NCBI GenBank assembly: GCA_030698885.1
Contig: JAUYLN010000016.1
Location: 1 to 49,896 of the forward strand
Source of the DNA: a bacterium
GTDB lineage: Bacteria > Patescibacteriota > Minisyncoccia > 2-02-FULL-40-12 > IGHO2-01-FULL-4-A
Direction of reading: 5' to 3'
DNA length: 49,896 nt
Shown here: positions 7,357 to 23,856 of the stretch, piece by piece
How the letters are laid out: every line of letters starts with the position of its first letter
Numbering within the stretch: the stretch's first letter is position 1
Notes under the pieces: generated by a model
Databases searched by the model: none
What the model saw: the letters and a program-made list of their open reading frames with translations, nothing else
Told to the model about the DNA's origin: nothing
Program-made: the position numbers and the translations under genes

Positions 7357-8789
7357 CCTAATTTTTCTATTCCGCCCCGGATATGTTCCAGGGTTTTTTC
7401 TTTGCCGAGAATATTTGCAATATCAACCGGGTCAGGCGATGCCTTCATGCCCGATAGTGCCACTCGTAATGGCCAGTACACCAATCCTCTATCCTCTAAC
7501 TCTTTTCCGAGCACATCCAGTTCGGCACGTAATTTATCCTTGTCATCGGTTCCGATTTTTTCAATTATATCTCTAACCTTTGATAGTGAACCGGTAACCT
7601 CTTCATCGGTTCGCTCCTTCCATTTTAGCAACCCTTTTTCATATTCATTGGGTCCGTCCAGGAAAAACTCAAATTCTTTTATGTCGGATATTTTTTTTAT
7701 TCTCTCGCGTACCATATTAAGGAATGGCTTGCCCATGACTTCGGTCAGCTGATAGTTGTGATGGATGCCTGAAAGCAATGCCTTCTCCAGCTCGTCGTCG
7801 CTTAATCTTTTAATGTATTCGCCGTTTAGCCAATCAAGTTTTTTTATATCAAAAACAGCTCCGCCCTTGTGGACTTTTTCAAGGTCAAAAATCTCTATTA
7901 ATTCGTCTAAGCTTAATATCTGCCTGTCATCCGGAGGTGTAAATCCAAGCATGGCCATAAAATTAACCATGGATTGAGGCAAATATCCTAATTTTGAATA
8001 CTCTACTACTGCGGTTGCGCCATGACGTTTGGACATTTTAGATCTGTCCTGACCTAAAATAAGCGGAAGGTGTGCATATTGAGGCATGTCAAAACCGAGG
8101 GCCTCCTGAATAAGGATTTGTTTGGGCGTATTGGCGATGTGATCTTCTCCCCTTATGATGTGGGAGATATTGTTCTCATAATCATCCACCACCACGGCAA
8201 AATTATATAACGGGGTGCTTTCATCTTTTGCGATGCTTAAATCGCCAAGTAATTTTTCTTCAAATTCAATATCTCCTCTGATTATGTCCCTGAATTTTAT
8301 TTTTCTCTCTGAGTTTTCATCCACCTTTAACCTTATGATTCCTTTGGAGCCTGTCTCTTGCCTGCCTGCCGAAGCCTCGGCGTAGGCAGGTGATTTGTGA
8401 TTTTCACCTTTGTAACTACAAAGATGACGCGGTGGTTGCTTGCCGGCCATTTGTTCCTGCTGTTCATTGGCTAGTTCTTCTTTTGTGTGATAACACCAAA
8501 ACGCTTTGCCGTTATCCAAAAGTTGTTTTACATATTTGGTATATATCGGAAGCCGGTCACTTTGCTTATAAAATTCATCCCATTCAAGCCCGAGCCATTT
8601 CAGGCTATCCAAAATGTCATCCTCATAGTATTTTGTTGACCGCTCAAGGTCGGTATCCTCAATCCTTAAAATAAATTTGCCGTTATTGCGCTTGGCAAAA
8701 AGATAATTAAAAAGCGCGGTACGGGCGGTACCGATGTGCAGATATCCTGTTGGGGAGGGTGCTATGCGCACCCGGATTTGATTTGACAT
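7353..8789 (-). CDS. gltX: glutamyl-tRNA synthetase
   Basis: A class I tRNA synthetase of 478 residues that charges tRNA-Glu, and in genomes with GatCAB often also mischarges tRNA-Gln. The HIGH-type motif is HIGT at 18-21 and the KMSKS-type motif is KMSKR at 251-255. The C-terminal helical anticodon-binding region is present. Near residues 134-144 the protein carries PAYAEASAGRQ, encoded by a palindromic element (8360-8390) inserted in frame into a surface loop; the rest of the enzyme looks intact. An extended -10 (TGATAGAAT) at 8798-8806 predicts a 5' leader of only about 2 bases. Confidence 0.96.
   Translation of the reverse strand: MSNQIRVRIAPSPTGYLHIGTARTALFNYLFAKRNNGKFILRIEDTDLERSTKYYEDDILDSLKWLGLEWDEFYKQSDRLPIYTKYVKQLLDNGKAFWCYHTKEELANEQQEQMAGKQPPRHLCSYKGENHKSPAYAEASAGRQETGSKGIIRLKVDENSERKIKFRDIIRGDIEFEEKLLGDLSIAKDESTPLYNFAVVVDDYENNISHIIRGEDHIANTPKQILIQEALGFDMPQYAHLPLILGQDRSKMSKRHGATAVVEYSKLGYLPQSMVNFMAMLGFTPPDDRQILSLDELIEIFDLEKVHKGGAVFDIKKLDWLNGEYIKRLSDDELEKALLSGIHHNYQLTEVMGKPFLNMVRERIKKISDIKEFEFFLDGPNEYEKGLLKWKERTDEEVTGSLSKVRDIIEKIGTDDKDKLRAELDVLGKELEDRGLVYWPLRVALSGMKASPDPVDIANILGKEKTLEHIRGGIEKLG
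8360..8390. repeat. in-frame palindromic element inside gltX
   Basis: Imperfect palindrome of the GCCTGCC...GGCAGG type within the coding sequence. It adds about 11 residues without breaking the frame. Related palindromes lie at 9255-9277, 20358-20377, 41999-42018 and 48461-48480. Confidence 0.75.
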
Positions 8790-8797
8790 GTATATTT

Positions 8798-8806
8798 ATT
8801 CTATCA
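8798..8806 (-). promoter_or_regulatory. extended -10 promoter of gltX
   Basis: Minus strand TGATAGAAT. Seven bases downstream is about 2 bases before the start codon, so the mRNA would be nearly leaderless. No clear -35 box. Confidence 0.45.
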
Positions 8807-8901
8807 CATTTTTTATTGAAATACAGGTTTTTCTGCATAATTATTTAAAATAAGCAACATGTCCAGTTTTTGTTAAATTGTTAAGGTGTTAAATTGTTAA
8901 T

Positions 8902-10890
8902 ATGTATATTATTGACGTTATTCCCCTGGCCTTTGTTCCCAGGAATCAGTCACAAATTTTAAGTTACTTCAATAAAGAACCTCTGGAACGTGGGGCAGTA
9001 GTTGAGGTTGCTTTAGGCAGACAAAAAATAAAAGGTGTGGTTATCGGTTCAGATAATATAAAAAACCGGAAGCTGGATTTTAAAAAGAGTGTTGATTTTA
9101 GTTTAAAAAATATCAGCAAAGTAGTTAGCAAGGAGCCGATAGTTTCCGGCAGTCAGCTGGAAATAGCACGATGGATGTCAAATTATTATTACGCTCCGCT
9201 TGGTGTTTGCCTAAAAACGGTATTGCCTCCATTTTGGATGAAGAAAAAGTATCAAGCCTGCCTGTCCGGTAGGCAGGTATCAAGCCACCGCCAAGGGCGG
9301 GGCCCCGCTGAAAGCGGTGGTAGTAAGTATCAAGCGCTTAATACTAAATACTTAATACCTAATACTAAATTTTTAACAACAAAATTAAAACAACATGAAC
9401 TTGATTATAAAAATGATATTGACAAAACTCTTCAAGATAAAAAACAAGTCTTTCTTCTTGTTGCCGAAAATACTGCTGGAAATTATTTTCTGGAAGCATA
9501 CAAAAAATATAATCCTGTTTTTATATCCAGCGACTTATCTAATAAGGAGTATTATAAAATTTGGCAGGATGTTGACTCCGGCAATGCCAGGCTTATTATA
9601 GGAACAAGAATCGGGCTATTTTTACCGTTTAAAAATTTAGGATTAATTATCGTAGACGATGAATCAAACGAATTTTATAAATCAGATATGATGCCAAGAT
9701 ATAGCGGAGTTGAGCTCGCGGAGCTTGTAGCCGGTTTAAATGGGGTGGAAGTCATCAGAAGCGCGGTAGTGCCGAGGGTAGAGAGTCAAGTAGTAAGTAG
9801 TAAGTATCAAGTATTAAGCGGAAACAAAAACACGAAAATTATTGATATGGTACAGGAAATAAAGGCGGGGAATTTTTCGGTTTTCAGCCGGGAGCTTAAG
9901 GAAAGTATCTTTGAAAATATTGAGGATGGCAAAAATACAATTTTATATATTCCGCGCAGAGGGCTTGCTAATTTTATAATATGCGAGAAATGCGGATATA
10001 TTTTAAAATGTCCTAATTGCACAGCTTCTCTAGTCCCCCATGAGGCAAGTCAGAGTTTGTTCTGTCATCATTGCAATCATCAAGAGCCGAAGCCAAAACT
10101 ATGTTCAAACTGTGGGAGTTATAAATTAAAACTGTATGGTCTTGGCATAGAGAAAGCAGAGAAAGAGCTTAAAAAACTTTTTGAATACACCGGGATGAAG
10201 TTGCCGGAAGTATTTCATTTAGACAGTGACTCAACTAAAAATGATGATAAAGTAGAAAAAGAAGTTATTAATAAATTCATGACGTCTGGGGGCGGGATAT
10301 TGCTGGCTACCCAGATATTATTTAGCCATAAATATTACGTGCGAGTACCGTTGATAGGAATAATTAATGGTGATACATTGATAAATATTCCTGATTTTAA
10401 AGCCGAAGAGTCGCTTTTCAGGCAAATTTATACGCTTAAGAGCATGGCAGATGAGCTAATTGTTCAGACGCATAACCCTGAAGATGTTGCGATAAAATTA
10501 GCAAGCAAGGGAAGCTTGGAAGAATTTGCTACAGGAGAGCTTGAGAACCGAAAAGAGTTTGCCTATCCCCCGTTCGCGCAGTTCATTAAATTAACCTATC
10601 GCCACAAAAATCCAGTTAAGGCTCGGAACGAAGCAAAGATATTAGCAGAAAAGTTAAAGTACCGTGTACGAGTTACGAGTTACGAGTTACGAGCTACGGA
10701 TATTATTGGACCTACTCCGGCTTTTATTAGCAGAGAGAGGGGGATGTATGTGTGGAACATAATTTTAAAGACGCAAGACACAAGAAACAATAACCAAATA
10801 AATTCAGAGGAAATTAAAAAGCGTAACGAATTGTTACGCATGGTTCCGGCCGGGTGGCTTGTGGATGTGGAACCGGTAAAACTTATTTGA
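8902..10890 (+). CDS. priA: PriA-like primosomal protein lacking helicase ATPase motifs
   Basis: A 662-residue protein clearly related to PriA, the replication-restart initiator. The N-terminal DNA-binding region and the zinc-binding segment are kept: eight cysteines at 361, 364, 370, 373, 388, 391, 401 and 404. The segment GTRIGLFLPFKNLGLIIVD matches the region around the DEAH box, but the box itself reads DDES, no Walker A (GxxGSGKT) is present before KQVFLLVAENTAG, and the QVAGRAGR motif VI is replaced by QIYTLKSMAD. The protein therefore should not hydrolyse ATP. Actinobacterial PriA has a comparable loss. Three repeat elements are inserted in frame (9249-9372, 9785-9820, 10665-10699). 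The start is directly preceded by word repeats. Confidence 0.88.
   Translation: MYIIDVIPLAFVPRNQSQILSYFNKEPLERGAVVEVALGRQKIKGVVIGSDNIKNRKLDFKKSVDFSLKNISKVVSKEPIVSGSQLEIARWMSNYYYAPLGVCLKTVLPPFWMKKKYQACLSGRQVSSHRQGRGPAESGGSKYQALNTKYLIPNTKFLTTKLKQHELDYKNDIDKTLQDKKQVFLLVAENTAGNYFLEAYKKYNPVFISSDLSNKEYYKIWQDVDSGNARLIIGTRIGLFLPFKNLGLIIVDDESNEFYKSDMMPRYSGVELAELVAGLNGVEVIRSAVVPRVESQVVSSKYQVLSGNKNTKIIDMVQEIKAGNFSVFSRELKESIFENIEDGKNTILYIPRRGLANFIICEKCGYILKCPNCTASLVPHEASQSLFCHHCNHQEPKPKLCSNCGSYKLKLYGLGIEKAEKELKKLFEYTGMKLPEVFHLDSDSTKNDDKVEKEVINKFMTSGGGILLATQILFSHKYYVRVPLIGIINGDTLINIPDFKAEESLFRQIYTLKSMADELIVQTHNPEDVAIKLASKGSLEEFATGELENRKEFAYPPFAQFIKLTYRHKNPVKARNEAKILAEKLKYRVRVTSYELRATDIIGPTPAFISRERGMYVWNIILKTQDTRNNNQINSEEIKKRNELLRMVPAGWLVDVEPVKLI
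9249..9372. repeat. composite in-frame repeat insertion inside priA
   Basis: Three units in a row: a GCCTGCC/GGCAGG-type palindrome (about 9255-9277), a second GC-rich hairpin (CCACCGC...GCGGTGG, 9285-9320) and a run of AGTATTA/AATACTA words. Together they code about 41 residues (YQACLSGRQ..., NTKYLIPNTK) with no frame break, between the N-terminal domain and the helicase-like core. Confidence 0.75.
9785..9820. repeat. in-frame AGTAAGTA word repeat inside priA
   Basis: Reiterated AAGTAGTAAGTAT words encoding SSKYQVLS. Nearly the same string occurs inside fmt at 12640-12671. Confidence 0.7.
10665..10699. repeat. in-frame GAGTTAC word repeat inside priA
   Basis: ACGAGTT repeated four times with small changes, encoding TSYELRAT near the C-terminus. 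Confidence 0.7.
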
Positions 10891-10926
10891 TGTATCAGCA
10901 CGTTGCAATGGTAGCTATTAATAACT

Positions 10927-11073
10927 TTATTTGAATTTTTTTATAAGTAACCACAGGGTTTTTATTAAAAAACCGATTGCGAATAAAATTAATATCGTAT
11001 TTATTGCGTGGGCTATATTTGGGTTAGGCGGAGCATATCGATAAGCCGATAAAATAAAAAATACGTATATCAC
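10927..11073 (-). CDS. small membrane protein, 48 aa
   Basis: A GTG-initiated frame on the minus strand with GGAG six bases before the start. The product has a short hydrophobic N-terminus (MIYVFFIL), a Pro/Asn-rich turn (YAPPNPN) and one clear membrane helix (about residues 24-43), ending in KKFK. No family recognised. It fills the gap between priA and def in the opposite direction. Support is the ribosome binding site and the membrane-protein composition only. Confidence 0.45.
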   Translation of the reverse strand: MIYVFFILSAYRYAPPNPNIAHAINTILILFAIGFLIKTLWLLIKKFK

Positions 11074-11195
11074 AATTTACTCCAATACAAATTATAAAAT
11101 AACCAAATATATCCTGGCACTTCAATTGACTTTAGTCAACATTAAGATATAGAATATCTTCTATCTTGACCTTTAAAAATATGGGAAAGATAACA

Positions 11196-11642
11196 ATGAA
11201 TATTACAAAAGAACCAAATAAGATATTGCATAAAAAACTGGCCGAAATCAAAGAAATTACTCCTGAAATTACGGAGCTGATTTTGGATATGAAAAAAACC
11301 ATGGTTGAAGCTAAGGGTGTGGGATTAGCCGGTAATCAAGTCGGGAAAGATTTACAAATATTTGTGATTGATGAAAACCTAGCGAAAGAAAACGGCGTGC
11401 CGGATGTATATTTAAATCCCGAGATAACCGAATTATCAAAAGATTTGGCCGAAATGGAAGAAGGATGCTTGAGCATTCCGGATTTCTGGGTAAATATAAA
11501 ACGTTCTAAAAAAATAAAGATTAAATTTATGGATGAGAACGGTAAAAAACAGAAACTAAAAGCGCGAGGGTTTCTCGCGCGGGTGCTTCAGCATGAGTAT
11601 GATCATTTGCAGGGAATGCTTATTAAAAATCGCATTAAGTAG
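11196..11642 (+). CDS. def: peptide deformylase
   Basis: Removes the formyl group from the N-terminus of new proteins. All three family motifs are present: GVGLAGNQ (41-48; consensus GxGLAAxQ, so Gly-Asn replaces Ala-x), EGCLSIP with metal ligand C91, and HEYDH with H133, catalytic E134 and H137. Length (148 aa from this ATG) is normal or slightly short. An upstream in-frame ATG at 11181 is also possible. It pairs functionally with fmt 0.5 kb downstream, although two small convergent genes lie between them. Confidence 0.95.
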   Translation: MNITKEPNKILHKKLAEIKEITPEITELILDMKKTMVEAKGVGLAGNQVGKDLQIFVIDENLAKENGVPDVYLNPEITELSKDLAEMEEGCLSIPDFWVNIKRSKKIKIKFMDENGKKQKLKARGFLARVLQHEYDHLQGMLIKNRIK

Positions 11643-11681
11643 TGAGTGGTTTGTAGTGAGTAGAGAGCAAGAAAAGAAAAA

Positions 11682-11739
11682 GCGCCGTGTGCTTGTCCCG
11701 TATGACTGGGACGATGCTTTGCATCACGGCGCCTTATTT
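11682..11739. terminator. bidirectional terminator-like hairpin
   Basis: Outer stem GCGCCGTG / CACGGCGC (11682-11689 and 11725-11732) with an inner GTCCC / GGGAC stem. On the minus strand it is followed by TTTTTCTTTTC, on the plus strand by TTATTTT, so it can end both def and the two minus-strand small genes. Confidence 0.7.
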
Positions 11740-11742
11740 TAA

Positions 11743-11976
11743 TCACTGGGCGACTTCATTCAGGGCCCTATCAACGGCGGCGGTTCCGAAGGCCAGCGAG
11801 TAGCCATCTTTCATTAGTTCCTTGATGGCGTTGATGCGCTGGAAGTGTCGGTTTTCTTTCTTGTGGAGTTCAAGAGCAATCTTGGCCATCTCAAGATGCT
11901 TTTCGGTAATCTCCACGTCAGCCAGACTTATGGCACGCCTTATCCTGGCCACTTGCACGGGCACGTATGGTCTCAT
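11743..11976 (-). CDS. hypothetical helical protein, 77 aa
   Basis: No family recognised. The product is an all-helical small protein with many Arg, Lys, Glu and Ala residues (for example EITEKHLEMAKIALELHKK). It is the second gene of a two-gene unit with the basic 49-residue protein at 11987-12136, 10 bases apart, ending at a strong terminator. The pair is visibly richer in G and C than its neighbours, which hints at a different history or at selection on a highly expressed short unit. Confidence 0.65.
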   Translation of the reverse strand: MRPYVPVQVARIRRAISLADVEITEKHLEMAKIALELHKKENRHFQRINAIKELMKDGYSLAFGTAAVDRALNEVAQ

Positions 11977-11986
11977 AGGTTACTCT

Positions 11987-12136
11987 CTATTGAGCCCTCC
12001 GAAGTTTGGTGCGAATCGCGGCCTTCAGCTTAACCGAAGATTGTGCGGCGCCTCGAATACTCTTGGTGCCTCTCCTACGCTGGGATCTACTTCCCAGATC
12101 CTCGCGCATTTTCCGGCGTTCCTTTTTGGTGATCAT
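11987..12136 (-). CDS. small, very basic protein, 49 aa
   Basis: Begins with MITKKERRKMRED and is about 40 percent Lys and Arg with no aromatic residue, so it probably binds nucleic acid or the ribosome. A perfect GGAGG lies 6 bases before the ATG. No family is recognised with certainty; the composition recalls short ribosome-associated proteins. The start region overlaps the fmt promoter on the other strand. Confidence 0.65.
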   Translation of the reverse strand: MITKKERRKMREDLGSRSQRRRGTKSIRGAAQSSVKLKAAIRTKLRRAQ

Positions 12137-12164
12137 TGTAAACCTCCTTTTATAATGATATCAT
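12136..12164 (+). promoter_or_regulatory. promoter of fmt, leaderless geometry
   Basis: TTGTAA, 17 bases, TATCAT. Seven bases after the -10 box is exactly the A of the fmt start codon at 12171. Confidence 0.5.
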
Positions 12165-12170
12165 AATTAT

Positions 12171-13112
12171 ATGGAAAAGTCAAGTATAAAACTAATATTT
12201 TTTGGAACGCCTGATTTTGCTGTGTCTGCGCTGGAGGCGTTGATTAAAGATGGCTATAATATCATGGCCGTAATAACTGAACCGGACAAAGAAGTCGGCC
12301 GGAAAAAGATTCTAACCTCGTCGCCTGTAAAAATAGCTGCAGAGAACCGCGGCATTCCTGTTTTACAGCCGGTAAAACTTAAAAACAATGAAGAGTTTCT
12401 AAATACGCTTAATACTAAATACTTAATACATAATACTGACTGCGGGGTGGTCGCCGCTTACGGCAAAATAATACCACCTGAAATTTTAAATTTGCCCAAG
12501 CATGGCCTGCTCAATATCCACCCGTCTCTTTTGCCGAAATACCGCGGTCCATCCCCTATTCAAACGGCAATATTAAATGGCGATAAAGAAACGGGGGTGA
12601 CAATTATGAGGGTAGGGCCGGAGCTGGATAGCGGAGATATAGTAGTAAGTAGTAAGTATCAAGTATCAAGCGAAAAATATTCCCCAGAAATTCACAAAGA
12701 ACTGTTTAAAATGGGCGGAGAACTTTTGGCAAAAATTATCCCGGAATATATTGAAGGAAAATTGAAGCCTATACCGCAGGACCATACTGAAGCTACCTTT
12801 ACCAAAAAATTTAGTTTAGCTGATGGAGAAATAAAACCTGAAGATATAGCTGAGCAGGCATATAATAAAATCCGGGCATTGAACCCGGAACCGGGAACCT
12901 ATTGGGCTTTGCCGGATGGCAAAAAACTCAAAATTTTGGAAGTTTACCTAGCGGTTCAACCGCTAGGTAAAAAGGGGCTTGTGCTAAAAGAGAATAAGCC
13001 CATCTTAGCTTTGGCGGACGGATTTTTGGCATTAAAAGTAGTACAGCCGGAGGGCAAGAAACCAATGGCCGGTACTGACTTCGCAAACGGCCATAGTCAT
13101 CTATTTAAATAA
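12171..13112 (+). CDS. fmt: methionyl-tRNA formyltransferase
   Basis: Formylates initiator Met-tRNA. The N-terminal catalytic domain has FFGTPDFA, the NIHPSLLPKYRG active-site stretch and the ELDSGD motif; the C-terminal OB-like tRNA-binding domain follows. Length (313 aa) is normal. Two word-repeat segments sit in frame: NTKYLIHNT (12403-12436) and VVSSKYQVSS (12640-12671), the second almost identical in DNA to a segment of priA. The gene has a leaderless-type promoter and no Shine-Dalgarno sequence. Confidence 0.96.
   Translation: MEKSSIKLIFFGTPDFAVSALEALIKDGYNIMAVITEPDKEVGRKKILTSSPVKIAAENRGIPVLQPVKLKNNEEFLNTLNTKYLIHNTDCGVVAAYGKIIPPEILNLPKHGLLNIHPSLLPKYRGPSPIQTAILNGDKETGVTIMRVGPELDSGDIVVSSKYQVSSEKYSPEIHKELFKMGGELLAKIIPEYIEGKLKPIPQDHTEATFTKKFSLADGEIKPEDIAEQAYNKIRALNPEPGTYWALPDGKKLKILEVYLAVQPLGKKGLVLKENKPILALADGFLALKVVQPEGKKPMAGTDFANGHSHLFK
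12403..12436. repeat. in-frame AATACTTAATAC word repeat inside fmt
   Basis: Reiterated ATACTTA/AATACTA words encoding NTKYLIHNT, close to the priA copy at 9340-9372. Confidence 0.7.
12640..12671. repeat. in-frame AGTAAGTA word repeat inside fmt
   Basis: Reiterated AGTAGTAAGTATCAAG words encoding SSKYQVSS, shared with priA 9785-9820 and with the spacer at 26850-26880. Confidence 0.7.
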
Positions 13113-13337
13113 TTTACTGAAGATTTCTTCAATCTTCAGTTTTTTTGATATTTTAGGCCCTAAAATTTTCTCAACAATATGCCTTGATCTATCTTTGCCG
13201 AATATCCAGACAAGGCCAATGAGTATCAGCCACGCTCCCGGGGTAAATGGCGTGATGAGTGCGACAAAACCTATGATAATTAAAATTACGGCTAATGCGA
13301 AATTAAGGTCGTAGATTATTTTTTTATGCTCGGGCAT
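13101..13337 (-). CDS. small two-helix membrane protein, PGPGW-like
   Basis: A 78-residue protein with two hydrophobic helices (about 12-30 and 35-49) joined by the loop TPFTPGAW, followed by a basic amphipathic tail. The loop resembles the motif of the putative PGPGW membrane family, whose role is unknown. It converges with fmt and overlaps its end by 12 bases. Confidence 0.65.
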   Translation of the reverse strand: MPEHKKIIYDLNFALAVILIIIGFVALITPFTPGAWLILIGLVWIFGKDRSRHIVEKILGPKISKKLKIEEIFSKLFK

Positions 13338-13361
13338 AGGAGCGTAGGATTAGAACTCATG

Positions 13362-13390: not shown

Positions 13391-13399
13391 AAAATCATC

Positions 13400-14122
13400 A
13401 TGGAAGGAAACAAAATATTAGAAGTAAGCGACTTGTCCGTGAGCTTTGACGGTTTAAATGTTTTAGAAAACCTTAATTTTAATGTGGAGAAAGGCAGTTC
13501 CCTCGCGGTAATCGGACCTAATGGCGCAGGTAAAAGCGTTTTATTCCGGGCATTGCTAGGCTTGATACCGTACAAAGGGACAATTGACTGGTCTCCCGGT
13601 ATAAAAATAAGTTATGTGCCTCAAAGGCTTGAGATAGAAAGGACTATGCCCCTGACGGTTTTAGAATTTCTAAAACTCAAAACTGAAAATTTTGAAGAGA
13701 TAAAAGAAGTTCTTGAGGTTGCCGGAATTAAAACCGGCCCCGACCATGAATATCATCTTGAGCAGCATGTTTTAAATAGAAAAATAGGCCTGGTATCCGG
13801 AGGAGAATTTCAAAGGATTCTAATTGCCTGGGCATTGATAGGGAGTCCTGATGTCTTGCTTTTTGACGAGCCTACTTCGGGCATTGATGTCGGCGGTGAG
13901 CAGACCATATATAATCTTCTTACAAAATTAAGGCAAGAAAAAGGCATGACCATAATTTTAGTTTCCCACGATTTAAACATAGTTTATAAATATGCCGGAA
14001 TGGTTTTATGCATAAATAAAGCTTCGGCCGTTTGTTTCGGCCATCCTGAAACCGTTCTTAAGCCCGAGGATCTTACGGCGCTTTACGGAGGCGAAGCGGA
14101 GTTTTATAAACATAACCACTAA
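13400..14122 (+). CDS. metal ABC transporter ATP-binding protein (ZnuC/MntA type)
   Basis: A complete 240-residue ABC ATPase: Walker A GPNGAGKS at 39-46, Q-loop near VPQRLE, signature VSGGE (consensus LSGGQ), Walker B LLFDEP and the switch histidine in LVSHD. Together with the ABC-3 permease 100 bases downstream it should form an importer for Zn2+ or Mn2+. No periplasmic binding protein gene is adjacent. The two genes are separated by a repeat element (14121-14222). Confidence 0.9.
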   Translation: MEGNKILEVSDLSVSFDGLNVLENLNFNVEKGSSLAVIGPNGAGKSVLFRALLGLIPYKGTIDWSPGIKISYVPQRLEIERTMPLTVLEFLKLKTENFEEIKEVLEVAGIKTGPDHEYHLEQHVLNRKIGLVSGGEFQRILIAWALIGSPDVLLFDEPTSGIDVGGEQTIYNLLTKLRQEKGMTIILVSHDLNIVYKYAGMVLCINKASAVCFGHPETVLKPEDLTALYGGEAEFYKHNH

Positions 14123-14185
14123 AATCATTTTAGCATTTTAACATTTAAGCATCTTAACATAATAAAACCCCGTAATTGGGGCCTC
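14121..14185 (+). repeat. 65-bp repeat, copy A of an inverted pair
   Basis: A 65-base unit containing CCCCGTAATTGGGG and words such as TTAACAT and TTTAAGCAT. It is 64/65 identical to the reverse complement of 15711-15775. The remaining spacer to 14222 consists of related words. Confidence 0.85.
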
Positions 14186-14222
14186 GTTAAATGCTCATAT
14201 GTTTTAATGTTTAAATGATTAT

Positions 14223-14981
14223 ATGGATTATTTGCAATTAATAGCTGCTATATTCGTAGGCGCTACGGCCGGTTATCTCGGCTCTTTTATGGTGCTCCGA
14301 AGAATGGCTTTGGTCGGCGATGCGCTTTCGCATGTGGCTTTGCCGGGAATTGCCCTGGCTCTAATGTTTAATTTCAGTCCCCCCATAGGGGCGTTTGCAG
14401 CGCTTTTTGGCGGAATAATTGTGGTATGGCTTCTTGAAAATAAAACTAAAATTGCAACTGAAGCTTTAATCGGGCTTATATTTACCGTGAGCTTATCAAT
14501 CGGACTTTTGATTACGCCCGATGAAGAACTTTTAGAAGCGCTGTTCGGGGATATTTCAACCATCAGTTTGTTTGAGGGCTTAGTGACTATTTTTCTTTCT
14601 ATTTTGGTTCTGCTTGTGATGAAAAAAATATCTAAAAGTTTTATGCTGTCAACTATCTCAAATGACCTTGCTAAGTCAGTAAAAATAAGGACATCGTTGG
14701 TTAATTTTGGATATTTAATGCTGGTAGCTGTTATAGTTGCCCTAGGCATAAAAACAGTCGGGACGTTACTTATGGGCGCTCTTGTCGTGATACCTGCCAT
14801 TGCTTCAAAAAACGTTTCAGGCGGGCTTTCTTCTTATGTTAAGGCATCTACCTTCTTCGGAGCTTTAAGTGGTGCCATAGGCGTTCTGTTAGCATTTAAA
14901 TATGGATTTGCCCCGGGTCCTATGGTAGTTCTTGCCAGCGCTGGGATATTTTTGATTACGTTGGTTTTTAAGAAAAATTAA
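14223..14981 (+). CDS. metal ABC transporter permease, ABC-3 family (ZnuB/MntB type)
   Basis: A 252-residue membrane protein with about 7-8 hydrophobic helices. The N-terminal pattern GSFMVLRRMALVGDALSHVALPG is typical of ABC-3 permeases that carry zinc or manganese. The partner ATPase precedes it. The distance is filled by an inverted-repeat element, which may decouple or tune the two genes. Confidence 0.92.
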   Translation: MDYLQLIAAIFVGATAGYLGSFMVLRRMALVGDALSHVALPGIALALMFNFSPPIGAFAALFGGIIVVWLLENKTKIATEALIGLIFTVSLSIGLLITPDEELLEALFGDISTISLFEGLVTIFLSILVLLVMKKISKSFMLSTISNDLAKSVKIRTSLVNFGYLMLVAVIVALGIKTVGTLLMGALVVIPAIASKNVSGGLSSYVKASTFFGALSGAIGVLLAFKYGFAPGPMVVLASAGIFLITLVFKKN

Positions 14982-15646: not shown

Positions 15647-15710
15647 CATTAAAACATATAAGCATATAAGCATTTAAACATCTAAGCATCTAAGCATCTA
15701 AGCATCTGGT
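15647..15710. repeat. AAGCATCT tandem words next to repeat copy B
   Basis: Reiterated ATAAGCAT/CTAAGCAT words that can pair in part with the ATGCTTA-like words on the other side of the copy B core. Confidence 0.6.
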
Positions 15711-15775
15711 GAGGCCCCAATTACGGGGTTTTATTATGTTAAGATGCTCAAATGTTAAAATGCTAAAATGATTTT
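15711..15775 (-). repeat. 65-bp repeat, copy B of an inverted pair
   Basis: Reverse-complement copy of 14121-14185 with one mismatch. The GC-rich core followed by T-rich sequence can act as a terminator for efp. Confidence 0.85.
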
Positions 15776-17653: not shown

Positions 17654-17654
17654 T

Positions 17655-17681
17655 CCCGGGCCTGGCTCGGGTATTTTTTTA
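17655..17681 (+). terminator. rho-independent terminator
   Basis: CCCGGGC, CTG loop, GCTCGGG, then TATTTTTTT. It also overlaps the end of the convergent glycosyltransferase. Confidence 0.8.
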
Positions 17682-18725
17682 TTTAAACCACTTTCTTATT
17701 TTTTTTGCTTCTATCCTGGTTTTTTTCATAACCCCCTTTCTTCTTTTTACCATTTTTGGCACCATCTTGACAATAGTAGGTATTTCAAGCACCATCCATG
17801 GTTCAAAGACTAAGAAGTAGGCCCAAAGCATGACTTGACGCTTTAATATCGGCCCAAAATCTTTAATTATATTTGAAGTGAAATCATTCTTAATAATCGT
17901 AAAAAGCCAGTTTCTGTAATCTAGCCTCCTCTTGAATTTAGGCACAGTTTTACGGATTTTTATAAAACTTTTCCATTTTCCGCCGGCTAGTTCTTTGGTG
18001 GTTTTTCTGTCATGCCATGCAATAACATTTGGGGTATAAACCTGTTTCCAACCGAACATATTTATCCGCCAAGCTAAATCAAGGTCGTCTCCATACCAAA
18101 AGAAATCCGGGTCAATAATATGTCCGTCAATTTTTATATTATCTAGCGCCTCTTTTCTAAATATAGGGACAGCACCCTCTACTCCAAAAATCTCTACCTT
18201 TTTTTCATACTGTCCTATATCTTTTTCGCCATGGCCAATATTAACTATTCGTCTGGATTTATATATTTCAAATCCCACAGTATCAATCACGTCGGTTTTT
18301 TTGATGGAGCCATAATTCATACTTCCTAATTCATACTTCATTATCTTCCCTTGCAGTGCTCCTATTTTTTCATCTTCTTCCATCGCCTTAACCACATTTT
18401 TTATAAAATTGTGCTCCAAAAGAACGTCAACTGACAGCGCAACTATGTATTTGCCGTGGCTGTGCTCAAGTAGCCATTCCTGCCCCGGCCACATGCCAAG
18501 ATTTTTTTCTTGAGTAAAAAATGACAGTTTAGGAATCTGCATTTTCCAGACTTCACTTTCTGCGTCTATTATCTCCCAAGTATTATCATCAGAATTATTA
18601 TCCAGAATATTTATTTCTATTTGCTCATGGGGGTATGTCTGTTTTAGTACGGAATCTAAACACCAGCGAATATACTTTCCGCCGTTATGAACTACAATGT
18701 TAATTGTAACCAGGGGCTGTGTCAT
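17679..18725 (-). CDS. family 2 glycosyltransferase
   Basis: A 348-residue GT-A enzyme. The N-terminus VTINIVVHNGGKYIRWCLDS and the LDNNSDDNTWE stretch are the nucleotide-sugar binding start of GT2; ALSVDVLL carries the DxD-like motif, and DFFWYGDDLDLAWR is the acceptor-side signature of rhamnosyl-type GT2 enzymes. A C-terminal hydrophobic region may bind the membrane. Its ATG overlaps the stop of the upstream O-antigen ligase gene by one base (TAATG). A word repeat (18311-18341) is in frame, encoding YELGSMNYG. Confidence 0.9.
   Translation of the reverse strand: MTQPLVTINIVVHNGGKYIRWCLDSVLKQTYPHEQIEINILDNNSDDNTWEIIDAESEVWKMQIPKLSFFTQEKNLGMWPGQEWLLEHSHGKYIVALSVDVLLEHNFIKNVVKAMEEDEKIGALQGKIMKYELGSMNYGSIKKTDVIDTVGFEIYKSRRIVNIGHGEKDIGQYEKKVEIFGVEGAVPIFRKEALDNIKIDGHIIDPDFFWYGDDLDLAWRINMFGWKQVYTPNVIAWHDRKTTKELAGGKWKSFIKIRKTVPKFKRRLDYRNWLFTIIKNDFTSNIIKDFGPILKRQVMLWAYFLVFEPWMVLEIPTIVKMVPKMVKRRKGVMKKTRIEAKKIRKWFK
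18311..18341. repeat. in-frame ATTCATACTT word repeat inside a GT2 gene
   Basis: Two copies of TAATTCATACTTC in a row within the coding sequence. Confidence 0.6.
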
Positions 18726-20320
18726 TATGGCACTTGAAGTTTTTTATTAACTCCCAAAATTACAGCGACCACCGTCGCAAACATTAGAAATGCACGTTCA
18801 TCAAATATGGCAATATCGGTCATTGAATAAGCCATAACCCAAAAAATAAACATCAATGCCGACATATTATATACAAGCAAAAACGAATCCCCTGTTGTTA
18901 TTATATTTTCATAAACTTTTTTAAGCAGTAGCCACAGAAACCAAGCTGATAGAATAAACGCCAGCGCACCCATTTCAGCGAAAATGTTCAAATATAGATT
19001 ATGCGCCGATGAACCGGCTCGGGCCAATTTTACGTCCTGACCCAATACCACTGGGAAATTTCCTATCCCAACGCCTAAGAGGGGGCGTTTTTTTATTGAT
19101 TCAAATGTCTGCTTCCATATTTCAAGGCGCAATTTATTAGACGTTTCTCCAAAATCAATAATTGAGCGGACTCGCTTACTCAACAGTTCTGAATTATCCT
19201 TGCTCAATAAAAATTGAGGTGATGCAAAAATAGGATAAGCCAAGCCAAAAAGAAGAACGAATATAAAAATATATGAAGCCAGATAACGGAATATATTTTT
19301 TGAAGTAGGTTTATTTTTAAAAAATAAATAGCTAAAAATAAAAGCACAGATAAGTGTTACGCCTCCGGCCAGCCACATTCCCCTGGTACCGGACAATATT
19401 ACTGCCAAGAATATTACAGGTACAAATAATACGGACATTTTTGCTCTAATTTTATAAAGTTGTTTCGCATTGTTTCCGGCTTTTTCTGTCACTTTATAAA
19501 TTGAAACGGCAAATATAGACGAAAGGCCAAGCAGTATAAAAATCGGGAAGGAGTGGCTGTCAGGAAATATAGAAAACATTCTTAATGATAATTGGTCTCC
19601 AAAATATGCAAACCATGTGTTCCCTACCCAGCTTGCGATGTAGCACCACTCATTACCAAAAAGCCGGCACTCTATTCCCTCGCCCCATATCCGCATGAAC
19701 TGATAAATATCCATCAGATAGGTCATGGCAAGCTGAATGAAACCAATTATTGCTACGGCAACAGTGGGAATGGCAATATTTTTGATGACTCTTTTCGCGA
19801 AATCTTTATTTCGCGAAATTAAGTCGTAAGCTACTATTCCTACCAATGACAAATTTATAAAATATATTATCCTTTTGACGCCGGCTGTTAAGTTTTGGGC
19901 TTGAGATAAGGACAAGACAGCCACCAACAGTATGGCCGAAGTTAGGAATATAAATTTATGTTCTTTCAAAAAATTAACAGGTTTTTTAAAGAAATTTCTG
20001 ACTCCTAGCCAAAGAATGTTAAAACCTCCTTCAACTAGCCATTTCAAAAAAATTATGCCGGAAATTATCCGCCATGTATTTAACTGATCAAAGGTTGTGG
20101 TGATGGGTAGGGCTATAAAAAACGGTATTGAACGAACAAAAAAGATTGCGGAGTCTTCTAGTTTGGTAAAAGCAATGTAAAATATAAGCCAGGCCACAAA
20201 TACCAAAATAACTTCGCGTGGAATAAAGCCGGCTATAACTAAGCCCACGGTGATGAGTTGGATTGTGTAAACGATATCCAGAATTTTTAATTTTAAATTT
20301 TTAATTTTAATTGAGATCAA
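18725..20320 (-). CDS. O-antigen ligase/polymerase family membrane protein
   Basis: A 531-residue integral membrane protein with about 12 helices. The periplasmic loop holds RLEIWKQTFESIKKRPLLG, then GVGIGNFP and HNLYLNIFAEMG, which are the conserved pieces of the Wzy/WaaL family. It polymerises or transfers lipid-linked polysaccharide outside the membrane. Its place among four glycosyltransferases and an LCP ligase supports a surface-polymer pathway. The N-terminal residues (ISIKIKNLKLKILD) are encoded by A/T word repeats, so the true start could be slightly downstream. Confidence 0.92.
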   Translation of the reverse strand: MISIKIKNLKLKILDIVYTIQLITVGLVIAGFIPREVILVFVAWLIFYIAFTKLEDSAIFFVRSIPFFIALPITTTFDQLNTWRIISGIIFLKWLVEGGFNILWLGVRNFFKKPVNFLKEHKFIFLTSAILLVAVLSLSQAQNLTAGVKRIIYFINLSLVGIVAYDLISRNKDFAKRVIKNIAIPTVAVAIIGFIQLAMTYLMDIYQFMRIWGEGIECRLFGNEWCYIASWVGNTWFAYFGDQLSLRMFSIFPDSHSFPIFILLGLSSIFAVSIYKVTEKAGNNAKQLYKIRAKMSVLFVPVIFLAVILSGTRGMWLAGGVTLICAFIFSYLFFKNKPTSKNIFRYLASYIFIFVLLFGLAYPIFASPQFLLSKDNSELLSKRVRSIIDFGETSNKLRLEIWKQTFESIKKRPLLGVGIGNFPVVLGQDVKLARAGSSAHNLYLNIFAEMGALAFILSAWFLWLLLKKVYENIITTGDSFLLVYNMSALMFIFWVMAYSMTDIAIFDERAFLMFATVVAVILGVNKKLQVP

Positions 20321-20338
20321 AAGATTTTAATAATTTAA

Positions 20339-20377
20339 TTTTAAAAAATTGATTTAACCTGCCTGCCGGCAGGCAGG
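20339..20377 (+). repeat. 39-bp palindromic element, shared with 41999-42036
   Basis: The palindrome CCTGCCTGCCGGCAGGCAGG plus an A/T flank containing TTGATTTAA. The flank is conserved in the copy at 41999-42036 in inverted orientation, so more than the palindrome is repeated. Next to it (20389-20405) lies a second palindrome, AACTCGTC-GACGAGTT. Confidence 0.8.
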
Positions 20378-20406
20378 AACTTAGAACTCGTCTGACGAGT
20401 TAGAAC

Positions 20407-21558
20407 TTAAAATTTAGAATTACTATTTTTGGTTTCTGTAACTTTTCTTATTATTTCCAAAAATAGGCTGGTATGTTCTTTCCAAGTATATTTTTCCAGT
20501 ATTTTCGGGGCGGCATTTAAAATTTGCTGCCTTTTTTGTTGGTTAGTAAGCGATTCTTTTATGGCTTTAGCAATACCGCTTATACTTATCGGCTCACTTA
20601 CTTTAAAAGCATTTTCGCCGTATATTTCATCATTTAGTTTTGTATCGGCGACTATAGGTACGGTACCCGCCGCCAACGCTTCAAGGGGCGGGAGGCCGAA
20701 TGCTTCATGTGGGGAAACATAAATGAATGAATTAGCATTTTGATACAGGGCAAGCAGTTCTTTTTCAGGCACGTAGTCTTTATATATTATAACTTCTTTT
20801 CCGTGTTTTTTATTTATTTTATAGGCCAATTCTTCTATTATAGGTAGTTGATATTTGTCTTTACCTACGGCAACTAATTTTAACTCAGGAAAATCATTAA
20901 CCAGTTCGTCTACGGCTATAATCGTCTCCCTTAAATGTCGGCGCGGGAAGGCTTGGCCTACGAATAACAAATAGTTTGTGGTTTGTGGTTTGTGGTTTGT
21001 GGTTTTTTGAAGTTTATCAGTATCAACGCCCAATGGGGTGGCAAAAACCCGTTCTTTGGGGATTTTAAAAAGTTCAGAAACTTCTTTAGCTGCTGTTTCC
21101 GAAACACTAGTTATGGCTGTGGCGTGGCGGGCGGCATGTTCAGCGAATATTTTATAGGCCAGACGATATCTGAACGGCAGGTTTTTATTTCTTATTTCAT
21201 AATAAATATCACCGGTTAAGGTTACTATGGACTTGCCTTTGTGTATCAGGGGCAGCATATAGTTCGGATAAAACATTACATCAAGTTTTTCAAAGTATAA
21301 TTTTATCGGTAAAAATACGTAGTAGTACAAACTAAAAGAAGGCCGGGCAAAAGGAATTTTAACTATTTTTTTAATAAATATTGGACTGGCCAAATGAATA
21401 TTATCCGGTATTCGTGATTTAAAATATAGATAAAAACGGAACTCATCTACGAGTTCCGGCCGTTTTGCAATCTCTTCTATCAGTTTGCTTACTATCCTGC
21501 CTACTCCCCATTGTTCTCCTTCTTCAATTGATTCGCATTCAATGCCTATTCTATACAA
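20407..21558 (-). CDS. family 4 glycosyltransferase (GT-B)
   Basis: A 383-residue GT-B enzyme. The C-terminal Rossmann half has YVSPHEAFGLPPLEALAAG, in which two glutamates spaced by seven residues (EAFGLPPLE) are the GT4 signature. The N-terminal acceptor half starts MYRIGIECESIEEGEQWGVGR. An in-frame word repeat (20974-21006) encodes TTNHKPQTTN at the linker between the halves, a tolerant position. Confidence 0.9.
   Translation of the reverse strand: MYRIGIECESIEEGEQWGVGRIVSKLIEEIAKRPELVDEFRFYLYFKSRIPDNIHLASPIFIKKIVKIPFARPSFSLYYYVFLPIKLYFEKLDVMFYPNYMLPLIHKGKSIVTLTGDIYYEIRNKNLPFRYRLAYKIFAEHAARHATAITSVSETAAKEVSELFKIPKERVFATPLGVDTDKLQKTTNHKPQTTNYLLFVGQAFPRRHLRETIIAVDELVNDFPELKLVAVGKDKYQLPIIEELAYKINKKHGKEVIIYKDYVPEKELLALYQNANSFIYVSPHEAFGLPPLEALAAGTVPIVADTKLNDEIYGENAFKVSEPISISGIAKAIKESLTNQQKRQQILNAAPKILEKYTWKEHTSLFLEIIRKVTETKNSNSKF
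20974..21006. repeat. in-frame GTTTGTG word repeat inside a GT4 gene
   Basis: GTTTGTG repeated four to five times; encodes a polar linker (TTNHKPQTTN). Confidence 0.7.
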
Positions 21559-21577
21559 ATAGCTTGTGGCTTATAGC

Positions 21578-22498
21578 TTATAGACTATTGCTATTGCCCA
21601 TAGTCCATCGGTTATTAGCCATTTTACCGAAACGACCCATATAAAAATCCATTACTCCCATCAGTATTGCTATAGAAACTGACCGTTTTGATGGTATTAA
21701 CAGAATTTTAGCTAACTGCTTTAAAATAACATAAATAGACCAAAACGGCAATAATAATTTTGCCCAAATAGGCCCATTTTTGATATTGAATAAATGGACA
21801 TTGCGGTAATGGTAATAAAGCAATTTCGCTGGGCCAAGTGAGCCGGTAGAGCTGGACACACTATGTTTTGCTATTGCTTCCGGTTCTAAGGCTAATTTAA
21901 ATCTGGCCTTTTGCGCCCGAACATTAAAATCCGCATCCTCAAAATATAGAAAGTAGCGTTCATCAAAGAGTCCTATTTTTTCAATGACCTTTTTCTTAAT
22001 GAGCATACTTGACCCGATTACGTATAGCTTATGGCTTATAGCTTTATGGCTGTGATTAAGTTCCGGTTTTAGCCAGGATATTTCTCCGCCATAAACAATT
22101 CTGTCACCCTCATTAACGGCCGGGCCGACAATGCCGATTTTTTCATCTGATTCAGCTTTTGCAACCAGTTTATCCAGTAAATCGGGCTCAACTAAAACAT
22201 CAGGATTTAAAATAAATACATAGTCTGCTTTATTTTCCAGGGCTTGTTTTATTCCCTCATTATTACCTCCAGAGTAGCCAAGATTTAAATTTAAAATTTT
22301 AAATTTAAAATTTAAATTATCTTGACTAGCAAGATAATTTTTGGTATTCTGCTGATGTTCGGGTGCCGAGGCGTTGTCAATGACAATAACCTCAAGATTC
22401 CCGTATTTGAGTTCTCTGACACTTTCAAGACACCGAATTGTATCTTCGGAGTTATTGAACTGGAGGATGATGATAGAAACTTTTGGTATAGTTATCAT
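21578..22498 (-). CDS. family 2 glycosyltransferase
   Basis: A 306-residue GT2 enzyme: VSIIILQFNNSEDTIRCLES at the N-terminus, VIVIDNAS, the DxD-like ILNPDVLV, and YFLYFEDADFNVRAQ near the acceptor site, as in rhamnosyltransferase-like members. The C-terminus is hydrophobic and may associate with the membrane. A/T word repeats (22281-22319) are in frame, encoding NLNFKFKILNLN. Confidence 0.9.
   Translation of the reverse strand: MITIPKVSIIILQFNNSEDTIRCLESVRELKYGNLEVIVIDNASAPEHQQNTKNYLASQDNLNFKFKILNLNLGYSGGNNEGIKQALENKADYVFILNPDVLVEPDLLDKLVAKAESDEKIGIVGPAVNEGDRIVYGGEISWLKPELNHSHKAISHKLYVIGSSMLIKKKVIEKIGLFDERYFLYFEDADFNVRAQKARFKLALEPEAIAKHSVSSSTGSLGPAKLLYYHYRNVHLFNIKNGPIWAKLLLPFWSIYVILKQLAKILLIPSKRSVSIAILMGVMDFYMGRFGKMANNRWTMGNSNSL
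22281..22319. repeat. in-frame AAATTTAAA word repeat inside a GT2 gene
   Basis: Perfectly symmetrical A/T run of TTTAAATT words, self-complementary, kept in frame. Confidence 0.65.
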
Positions 22499-22547
22499 AT
22501 GCTTAACGGCAACATGGTTTATTTCTGGCTCTCTGGCTTATGGTGTC

Positions 22548-22553
22548 TATAAT
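22548..22553 (+). promoter_or_regulatory. -10 box in front of a small plus-strand frame
   Basis: Perfect TATAAT whose predicted start (+7) falls on the A of the ATG at 22560. No good -35 box. Confidence 0.35.
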
Positions 22554-22559
22554 TACAAT

Positions 22560-22727
22560 ATGAAAATTCATTATACGCCAAAACACAAGTGGCCTCTTTC
22601 TAAATTAAAAACTGCTGCTATTTCTATTGTGGCAGGACCATTTATTTTTTTATTTATGAACTCGGCTGCTCGTATGGGTAAACAAAAAATTTATTGGCAC
22701 ATTAAATTTGGGTCGTTTGTGCTGTAA
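22560..22727 (+). CDS. possible small membrane protein, 55 aa
   Basis: A basic protein (MKIHYTPKHKWPLSKLK) with one hydrophobic helix (about 18-38) and a basic tail. No family recognised. It fills the only sizeable gap in the glycosyltransferase cluster, on the opposite strand, and has a perfect -10 box in leaderless position. It overlaps the end of the next glycosyltransferase by 26 bases. It could still be a chance frame. Confidence 0.35.
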   Translation: MKIHYTPKHKWPLSKLKTAAISIVAGPFIFLFMNSAARMGKQKIYWHIKFGSFVL

Positions 22728-23856
22728 GATTTAATATCTTATTTCTAAACACATTTTTCGAGAACCGCTCCGCGGTTCTTTTTATTTCTTCCGGGTCATA
22801 TTTTTTTATATTCTTTTTCAGTAACATGGCATTGTAAGCTAGGACATCAGAATGAGGGTCAGTAAAAAATTCGCCATTAACACCCGACTTTATGTATTCT
22901 AGCGCGCCCCCGCGCTTTAATGCCAATACCGGTTTGCCGAAACTCATTGCTTCAATAGGAGTAATACCAAAGTCTTCTTCCTGGGGCATGATAAAGGCCA
23001 GGCAATTGGTGTAGTATTCCTTAAGTTTGTTGTCAGGTATAAATCCTAATATCTGAATATTATTTTTAGCCATTTTTTTGAGACGGTTTTTTTCGGGCCC
23101 GTCTCCTATTATCACCAACGGCCAGCCAAGTTTATTAAAGGCCCGGACCGCAATTTCAACATTTTTATGAGGAAAGAGGCGGGAGACCACAAGGAAATAA
23201 TCGGTAATCGGTAACTGGTAATCCCGACGATTCTGTCGGGACCCCGACCCAAAGGCGTCGGGGCTGGTAATTGTTTTGTAATTCAATATGTTTACCGGAG
23301 GATAAATAACCGAAGAATCTCTCTGGTAGTATTTTTTTATTCTTTCTGAAATATTTTTTGAATTAGCTATAAAATAGTCTACCCTTGCCGATGCATGCCT
23401 GTCCCATATTCTCACAAAGTGCTGAAGAAGAGATGTGGCAATTCTCGGTGTTCTTTTTGACTCGGTTTTGTATTCTATGTGCCAATCCCAAAGCTGTCTG
23501 GTTGGGCTGTGGCAATAACAGATGTGGACTGTCCGGGGCTTAACTATAAGTCCTTTGGCAAAGTAGGCGGACGAAGATATGACAATATCAAAATCAGCAA
23601 AATCAAAAGATTCCACGGCTATAGGCATGAAGGGCATCAAGAGTTTATGATTTTTTAACCGTCGGTAGTGTTTTTGTAAAAAAGATGCCCTTATTTCGGT
23701 CTTTGGTAAAAATTCTTTAACAAATTTTTCATTGTAAAACAAAACATATACCGGCGCCTCCGGAAATATTTCATGGAGTTCTTTGAGGACATTTTCCGCT
23801 CCCCCGACTCCCAAAAGCCAATCATGGACTAATGCAATCCTTAGGTTAGTTGACAT
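22702..23856 (-). CDS. family 4 glycosyltransferase (GT-B)
   Basis: A 384-residue enzyme starting LRIALVHDWLLGVGGAENVL, with the donor-side EEDFGITPIEAMSFGKPV (two Glu spaced by seven residues). It resembles mannosyl- or related sugar transferases of surface-polymer clusters. Between the two halves, residues near 203-217 (SPDAFGSGSRQNRRD) come from a GC-rich double palindrome (23223-23263) inserted in frame. The divergent small gene at 23899 has its promoter over this start codon. Confidence 0.9.
   Translation of the reverse strand: MSTNLRIALVHDWLLGVGGAENVLKELHEIFPEAPVYVLFYNEKFVKEFLPKTEIRASFLQKHYRRLKNHKLLMPFMPIAVESFDFADFDIVISSSAYFAKGLIVKPRTVHICYCHSPTRQLWDWHIEYKTESKRTPRIATSLLQHFVRIWDRHASARVDYFIANSKNISERIKKYYQRDSSVIYPPVNILNYKTITSPDAFGSGSRQNRRDYQLPITDYFLVVSRLFPHKNVEIAVRAFNKLGWPLVIIGDGPEKNRLKKMAKNNIQILGFIPDNKLKEYYTNCLAFIMPQEEDFGITPIEAMSFGKPVLALKRGGALEYIKSGVNGEFFTDPHSDVLAYNAMLLKKNIKKYDPEEIKRTAERFSKNVFRNKILNLTAQTTQI
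23223..23263. repeat. in-frame double GC-rich palindrome inside a GT4 gene
   Basis: CCCGACGA...TCGTCGGG-like hairpin followed by CCCCGAC...GTCGGGG. Frame is kept. Confidence 0.7.

What the first reader, a model, noticed from the sequence alone, without database searches (positions are those of the whole stretch)
8360..23263. Palindromes and reiterated words inserted in frame in at least nine places of conserved proteins
gltX, priA (three sites), fmt (two sites) and four glycosyltransferases carry segments (PAYAEASAGRQ, NTKYLIPNT, SSKYQVLS, TSYELRAT, TTNHKPQTTN and others) whose DNA is a GC-rich palindrome or a run of short words also found in spacers. All keep the frame and lie at linkers or loops. 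Known parallel: Rickettsia palindromic elements. This suggests a mobile or copy-making process with selection for harmless in-frame landings.
Basis: partly seen in the sequence, partly recalled or inferred. Interest (0 to 1): 0.7.

Follow-up and report, generated by a model that had tools for sequence, protein, structure and literature searches.

The report
Seven-base repeat patches overwriting protein loops
In this tiny-genome bacterium (Patescibacteria-like) and its relatives, flexible loops of essential proteins are repeatedly rewritten, mostly without changing length, by short DNA patches that repeat a seven-letter word about four and a half times, and small GC-rich palindromes then insert inside some of these patches; the process that writes them is unknown.

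Summary
The odd segments are real, in frame and far beyond chance, but "palindromes and words inserted in frame" merges two things. (1) Heptad arrays: about 30-33 nt of a 7-nt word repeated ~4.5 times. The genome (953 kb read) holds 91, against 9 for period 8, 8 for period 9 and at most 1 for periods 4-6 and 10-13; 35 lie in genes, including priA, fmt and glycosyltransferases. In most genes they are NOT insertions: protein length hardly changes against relatives, E. coli or B. anthracis. They overwrite variable loops in place. The same Fmt loop carries perfect arrays with different words in at least eight other Patescibacteria, at unchanged length, even within one genus. Within this genome words are shared between loci far above chance and arrays have preferred ends, so they are copied. 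(2) GC palindromes (PAYAEASAGRQ in gltX, LSGRQ in priA): true in-frame insertions (30, 21 nt), several inside a heptad array whose register continues when they are removed. No RAYT transposase, no detectable target-site duplication. Closest known: heptanucleotide repeats of Xanthomonas and Nostoc. Favoured but unproven mechanism: length-neutral short-patch copying or slippage in cells lacking MutS and RecJ but having ComEC. New variant of a known kind.

The parts
8361..8390 (-). GC palindrome CCTGCCTACGCCGAGGCTTCGGCAGGCAGG in gltX, read as PAYAEASAGRQ; true in-frame insertion, heptad-like TGATTTGTGATT beside it (8391-8402)
   Evidence: Exact copy in gatA (L056) and 1-3 mismatch copies in three other genes; absent from G003, G004 and other GltX loops
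9247..9366 (+). priA site 1 composite: AAGTATCAAG | palindrome 9257-9277 (21 nt) | TATCAAG | palindrome 9285-9320 (36 nt) | TAGTAAGTATCAAG | inverted heptads 9335-9366
   Evidence: Sequence; extra relative to 29 PriA relatives; heptad register continues across the 21-nt palindrome; G024 PriA has an AATTACA array at the same linker
9788..9821 (+). priA site 2 heptad array AAGTAGTAAGTAGTAAGTATCAAGTATTAAGCG (QVVSSKYQVLSG)
   Evidence: Nearly identical to the fmt array, 34/36; -1 aa against G003
10667..10698 (+). priA site 3 heptad array (ACGAGTT)n, VRVTSYELRAT
   Evidence: +3 aa against G003
12406..12437 (+). fmt site 1 heptad array CGCTTAATACTAAATACTTAATACATAATACT, inverted relative to site 2
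   Evidence: 31/32 identical to 9335-9366; best inverted partner of site 2, 24/30
12641..12674 (+). fmt site 2 heptad array AGTAGTAAGTAGTAAGTATCAAGTATCAAGCG (VVSSKYQVSS): in-place overwrite of an ancestral loop
   Evidence: Gap-free alignment with 4iqf and 1fmt; same loop holds other words in other genera at constant length
12943..12971 (+). perfect 29-nt palindrome in fmt (VYLAVQPLGKK)
18310..18340 (-). 14-nt doublet in the glycosyltransferase at 17679-18725 (YELGSMNYGS)
   Evidence: Sequence; weak, below the array threshold; family 2 glycosyltransferase
20974..21005 (-). perfect heptad array (AAACCAC)n in a group-1 glycosyltransferase, KTTNHKPQTTN
   Evidence: 0 to -2 aa against G004/G003; same word in uvrC-like gene L045
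22019..22044 (-). heptad words GCTTATA/GCTTATG in a family 2 glycosyltransferase; also at 21554-21579 (spacer) and 20966-20991
   Evidence: family D8
22287..22316 (-). A/T heptad array (AAATTTA)n, NLNFKFKILNL, in the same glycosyltransferase
   Evidence: -1 aa against G003
23197..23271 (-). heptads (GGTAATC) with two GC palindromes 23223-23240 and 23242-23263 inside, in a group-1 glycosyltransferase
   Evidence: Sequence; longer than G003, G004 and G028 homologues
20354..20377 (.). spacer copy of the 20-nt palindrome CCTGCCTGCCGGCAGGCAGG; others at 41995-42018 and 48457-48480
   Evidence: D9; 41 such elements in the genome
14121..14225 (.). octad (period 8) arms around a GC stem; inverted copy at 15671-15775
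   Evidence: I1

Best explanation
Two layers. Layer 1 (shown): ~30-33-nt tracts of a 7-nt word, ~4.5 copies, dense in spacers and also written into variable loops of conserved genes, mostly replacing the codons there at constant length. Layer 2 (shown): short GC palindromes, 20-36 nt and a multiple of three in these genes, inserted in frame, often inside a heptad tract. Mechanism (inferred): heptad tracts are made and spread by length-neutral short-patch synthesis. A strand carrying a heptad tract (a 7-nt slipped nascent strand, or a short single strand from another tract or from outside) anneals at a partly matching loop and is copied or joined in, so ~32 nt are overwritten. Annealing between words explains the shared words and preferred ends; loss of MutS and RecJ removes the activities expected to reject loops and short single strands. 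Selection then keeps only stop-free, frame-keeping outcomes in tolerant loops.
For: Period 7 dominates in this and other Patescibacteria genomes. Length peaks at 30-33 nt (70 of 123 arrays), not at whole heptad numbers. Constant local length in 14 of 22 aligned genic arrays; gap-free with E. coli and B. anthracis in Fmt, -1 in LepA, -2 in TatD, -3 in LeuS. Same Fmt loop, same length, different words in G002, G018, G024, G031, G035, G039; in genus g19 two species have different arrays and a third has none. Words shared between loci 11 vs 0.47 expected (genic) and 100 vs 1.65 (intergenic), 9 genic-intergenic pairs. Same-word arrays share start and end phase in 12 and 16 of 29 pairs, ~4 expected. 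PriA and Fmt arrays share internal imperfections. A short seed TATCAAGTATCAAGC is already in G003 fmt. PolA gained exactly 21 nt = 3 heptads against G003. RecJ and MutS absent from this genome and the whole order sampled, RecA and ComEC present. RecJ is reported to suppress integration of short DNA by illegitimate recombination (title of Harms 2007, cited in PMC13344027). Palindromes split arrays in register.
Against: No strain-level before/after pair shows a patch being written. RecJ and MutS are missing also from relatives with few or no arrays, so their loss is at most permissive. A slip-and-return or annealing event that keeps length exactly is not the commonest outcome of slippage. Why 7 nt and why ~32 nt is not explained. 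Some arrays are real insertions (MnmA +20 aa, PolA +7 aa). Shared words could also reflect a common function. Homologue pairs are 50-75% identical, so gap placement in loops is uncertain outside Fmt.
Confidence: 0.42

Rival explanations
1. Ordinary simple-sequence-repeat slippage: heptanucleotide repeats arise in situ by polymerase slippage, with 7 nt set by the polymerase-DNA contact, and selection keeps the frame.
For: [quoted passage not shown] PolA array is +21 nt (3 heptads). No MutS.
Against: In-situ slippage does not explain words shared between loci and preferred ends, the narrow 30-33 nt size, or unchanged protein length.
Confidence: 0.25
2. The arrays are DNA sites under selection: ~32 bp of 7-bp periodicity is recognised by a protein (for uptake, segregation or termination), as uptake sequences are, and they accumulate in permissive loops by point mutation and in spacers as inverted pairs.
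For: Fixed size, in-place occurrence in tolerant loops, recurrence at the same loops in different genera, 25% of spacer arrays with a >=75% inverted partner within 200 nt against 1% of controls; ComEC present.
Against: No constant word even within one genome; relatives use other words. Spacer arrays do not prefer convergent gene ends. Some relatives showed none in the stretch sampled.
Confidence: 0.2
3. A MITE/REP-like mobile palindromic element whose arms are heptads and whose core is the GC palindrome, moved by a transposase in trans.
For: Some spacer elements share >80 nt hairpins; the same palindrome occurs in five genes; PriA of G021 has PAGRHGQ that same-genus G027 lacks.
Against: No Y1_Tnp in the genome; no target-site duplication detectable; most genic heptad arrays add no length; only about 15 of 41 CCTGCC palindromes have periodic flanks.
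Confidence: 0.1

Closest known systems
Heptanucleotide simple sequence repeats of Xanthomonas (GGGAATC) and Nostoc (GGGGAYT) (PMC4692102)
   Same: 7-nt unit, clear preference for four units, over-represented in non-coding DNA, frequent inverted neighbouring pairs
   Different: There one G-rich word per organism, with four units linked to G-quadruplexes; here many mostly A/T-rich words, genome-specific, inside loops of essential proteins, usually without lengthening them
TAACTGA direct repeats of Beggiatoaceae and cyanobacteria (PMC4679880)
   Same: Heptamer arrays of a few units, mostly intergenic, with stop codons limiting their place in genes
   Different: A single word concentrated just upstream of start codons
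Rickettsia palindromic elements
   Same: Palindromic DNA inserted in frame in housekeeping genes and also present in spacers: applies to the CCTGCC...GGCAGG palindromes
   Different: RPE are about 100-150 bp; these are 20-36 nt and often sit inside heptad tracts; the heptad arrays themselves are mostly not insertions
Short-patch double illegitimate recombination (SPDIR, own knowledge; related RecJ work cited in PMC13344027)
   Same: Length-neutral templated overwriting by short intragenomic or foreign single strands, raised when RecJ is lost
   Different: Known as rare mutation clusters, not as periodic ~32-nt tracts recurring at the same loops
DNA uptake sequences (DUS/USS; own knowledge)
   Same: Embedded in tolerant coding positions without insertion, inverted pairs in spacers
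   Different: Fixed word per species; here no fixed word

Membership tests
Heptanucleotide SSR (long simple sequence repeats) | 7-nt head-to-tail repeats beyond chance | tested here: met
   91 period-7 arrays, at most 1 for periods 4-6 and 10-13
Heptanucleotide SSR (long simple sequence repeats) | Over-represented in non-coding DNA | tested here: met
   42 vs 4.3 per 100 kb
Heptanucleotide SSR (long simple sequence repeats) | Growth by whole-unit insertion (copy-number variation) | tested here: not met
   Lengths peak between whole units and proteins keep length; PolA +21 nt is the exception. Copy-number variation among strains was not testable here
Rickettsia palindromic element type | Palindrome inserted in frame in genes, copies in spacers | tested here: met
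   GC palindromes only: gltX, gatA, tsaD and others, plus spacers
Rickettsia palindromic element type | ~100-150 bp element | tested here: not met
   20-36 nt
REP / TnpA-REP (RAYT) | Genome encodes a Y1 transposase of the RAYT kind | tested here: not met
   No PF01797 match in the genome at 94.6% completeness; controls positive
MITE | Terminal inverted repeats with target-site duplication | tested here: inconclusive
   Hairpin spacer elements exist, no duplication visible, but repeated words would mask one
DNA uptake sequence | One conserved word per genome | tested here: not met
   Over 40 words in one genome
DNA uptake sequence | Preferential uptake of DNA carrying it | not testable with these tools
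   Needs an uptake assay
SPDIR | Length-neutral templated patch with microhomology ends and an identifiable donor | tested here: inconclusive
   Length-neutral and shared words shown; donor and ends not resolvable at 60% identity

The most novel reading that the evidence does not exclude
Patescibacteria have an active, dedicated or by-product DNA process that writes ~32-nt, 7-periodic patches in place into the genome, including loops of essential proteins, with a lexicon that turns over between species, so that heptad tracts act as self-propagating, length-neutral elements and as landing pads for small palindromes.
Probability: 0.25. Interest if true: 0.85.

Novelty: new variant of a known kind. 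Interest (0 to 1): 0.62.

Why it matters
It shows a mutational process that rewrites protein loops without changing their length, common enough to leave scores of marks per small genome and found in several Patescibacteria lineages, a large and mostly uncultured group. It also gives heptanucleotide repeats with a four-unit preference in words that are not G-rich, so the G-quadruplex account of that preference in Xanthomonas and Nostoc cannot be general. The arrays are readable traces that make the question "why seven nucleotides?" testable by comparing strains, and they warn annotators that odd peptides such as QITNHKSQITN or PAYAEASAGRQ reflect DNA-level events rather than domains.

Tried and rejected
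All-insertion reading: rejected for most arrays by alignments with relatives and solved structures. REP/RAYT: no transposase. Assembly artefact: rejected because intact frames run through the arrays and the pattern appears in independently assembled, named Patescibacteria (10 period-7 arrays in 78 kb) against 2 in 210 kb of other bacteria. Protein-level selection for the peptides: unlikely, since spacer arrays have the same form and 38 of 56 have stops in all six frames. Terminator role: spacer arrays do not prefer convergent gaps. Seeds in homologues: lag-7 identity of homologous segments is only marginally raised (0.313 against about 0.29), so only some arrays grew from visible seeds. RecJ/MutS loss as sole cause: rejected, array-poor relatives lack them too. 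Genus comparison: only one genome of the genus is held. First Fmt/MnmA alignment used unoriented loci and was redone. Literature searches found no paper on this in Patescibacteria; subscription journals are mostly not held.

Full report
WHAT IS THERE. The window is the whole contig C30 of a 957-kb, 38-contig genome. Its relatives, the names of matching records (Parcubacteria, Tagabacteria, Patescibacteria), small size and missing MutS/RecJ fit a Patescibacterium; this placement is inferred. I read 953 kb of it. All segments named in the finding exist in frame: GltX, PriA and Fmt score above NCBIfam cut-offs and the others are family 1 and 2 glycosyltransferases.

NOT CHANCE. A word-independent scan for period p gives 38 arrays at p = 7 in 831 kb against 0-6 for other non-multiple periods and 0 in a Markov-2 simulation. 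At the looser cut-off used afterwards: 91 at p = 7, 9 at 8, 8 at 9, at most 1 at 4-6 and 10-13, and 40 at the harmonic 14. Lengths peak at 30-33 nt: 70 of 123 arrays over all genomes scanned. Whole heptads would give 28 or 35; lengths of 2-5 beyond a multiple of seven make up 67 of 91. Density is 42 per 100 kb outside genes and 4.3 inside (genes were called by a simple longest-ORF rule).

TWO CLASSES. Heptad arrays (for example AAGTAGTAAGTAGTAAGTATCAAGTATTAAG, AAACCACx4.5, AAATCACx4.5) differ from GC palindromes (CCTGCCTACGCCGAGGCTTCGGCAGGCAGG and CCTGCCTGCCGGCAGGCAGG). The 30-nt palindrome is in gltX, gatA (L056), L072, L039 and tsaD (L139) with 0-3 mismatches; in four of the five it sits inside clear heptads of different words, and deleting it leaves the register intact, as in AAATCACAAATCA|pal|CAAATCACAAAA and AATTACAAATTA|pal|CAAATTACAAAA. 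priA site 1 is the same: AAGTATCAAG|21 nt|TATCAAG. About 15 of 41 such palindromes have periodic flanks. The Fmt loop of a Tagabacteria record carries heptads interrupted by a ~10-residue palindrome-like insert. These palindromes are insertions: GltX and GatA gain about 10-14 aa against homologues, and G021 PriA has PAGRHGQ that same-genus G027 lacks.

HEPTAD ARRAYS MOSTLY OVERWRITE. Against the best relative, 14 of 22 genic arrays change local length by at most 2 aa, one is 5 aa shorter, four add 3-4 aa and three (two in one MnmA insertion) add 7 or more. Against solved structures: Fmt 0 against E. coli and B. anthracis, LepA -1, TatD -2, LeuS -3, GatA site 1 about -3, KsgA -9, TsaD site 1 +5. 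Fmt is the clearest: its loop (GDIVVSSKYQVSSEKY) holds heptad arrays at the same columns in G002 (AATTGGC), G018, G024 (AAGCTAC), G031 (AACCTAC), G035 (AATTACG) and G039 (AATTTTC) and in named records L217 and L222. Within genus g19 G024 and G035 have different words and G038 none, with the same length. MnmA has three such loops in eight genomes, PriA site 1 an array in G024, and GltX a KVKSQKSKVKS array in G011.

COPYING AND FILTER. Words are genome-specific but shared within the genome: 11 pairs among genic arrays with G/C (0.47 expected; maximum 4 in 2000 draws), 100 among intergenic ones (1.65 expected), 9 across. Same-word arrays start and end in the same phase more often than chance (12 and 16 of 29 pairs, 4.1 expected, leaving out the largest family). 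The priA and fmt arrays share internal imperfections. These statistics treat arrays as independent and the spacer families are partly longer hairpins, so the genic numbers are the safer ones. The stop-rich word AAATTAG occurs 14 times, always in spacers; 38 of 56 spacer arrays have no open frame.

MECHANISM. Shown: periodicity, size, in-place replacement, shared words, palindrome insertion. Inferred: short-patch copying. The cell has RecA and ComEC, not MutS or RecJ; RecJ is reported to suppress integration of short DNA by illegitimate recombination (Harms 2007, cited in PMC13344027), and SPDIR is known to me as a length-neutral short-patch process. A purely mutational 7-nt slippage (proposed by Mrazek 2007, as told in PMC4679880 and PMC4692102) may start arrays, as the PolA case (+21 nt) suggests. 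A selected DNA site remains possible because size is fixed and loops recur. I cannot separate these without strain-level pairs.

KNOWN OR NEW. Heptanucleotide repeats with a four-unit preference and inverted pairs are known in Xanthomonas and Nostoc (PMC4692102), and TAACTGA arrays in Beggiatoaceae (PMC4679880). I found no description of many-worded, in-place arrays in conserved protein loops, nor of palindromes landing inside them; the library lacks most subscription papers. Hence: new variant of a known kind.

LIMITS. Thresholds are mine; relatives were sampled at 40-280 kb each; genome completeness is 94.6%; loop alignments at 50-75% identity can misplace gaps, and only Fmt is firmly anchored.

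Noticed in passing
29571-38260: Six spacers share an ~82-nt hairpin family built of TACTAAT/TACGAAT words (D1-D3, D5), sometimes in inverted orientation: a local dialect of this part of the window.
   Followed up: partly
14121-14225 and 15671-15775: Inverted 105-nt copies with octad (period 8) arms around a CCCCGTAATTGGGG stem, flanking an ABC-permease-like gene and an efp-like gene.
   Followed up: no
L038:13997-14054 and 14779-14813: Period-9 spacer arrays CTATCCGAC / GCCTATCCG, unlike the heptads.
   Followed up: no
L054:10782-10879: A gene with a run of about 33 prolines coded by CCGCCACCG repeats.
   Followed up: no
L243:2465-2567 (Thermaceae MAG): The only non-Patescibacteria record of the Fmt set with period-7 arrays (CGTAGTG, CGTAGTA).
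   Followed up: no
L118:16934-17623 (G037): A relative in which octads (ATATTTAA, GTTTCAAA) outnumber heptads, so unit length may differ between lineages.
   Followed up: no
L048:1429 and L084:684: 144-nt inverted near-identical stretches on two small contigs, possibly a repeat that broke the assembly.
   Followed up: no
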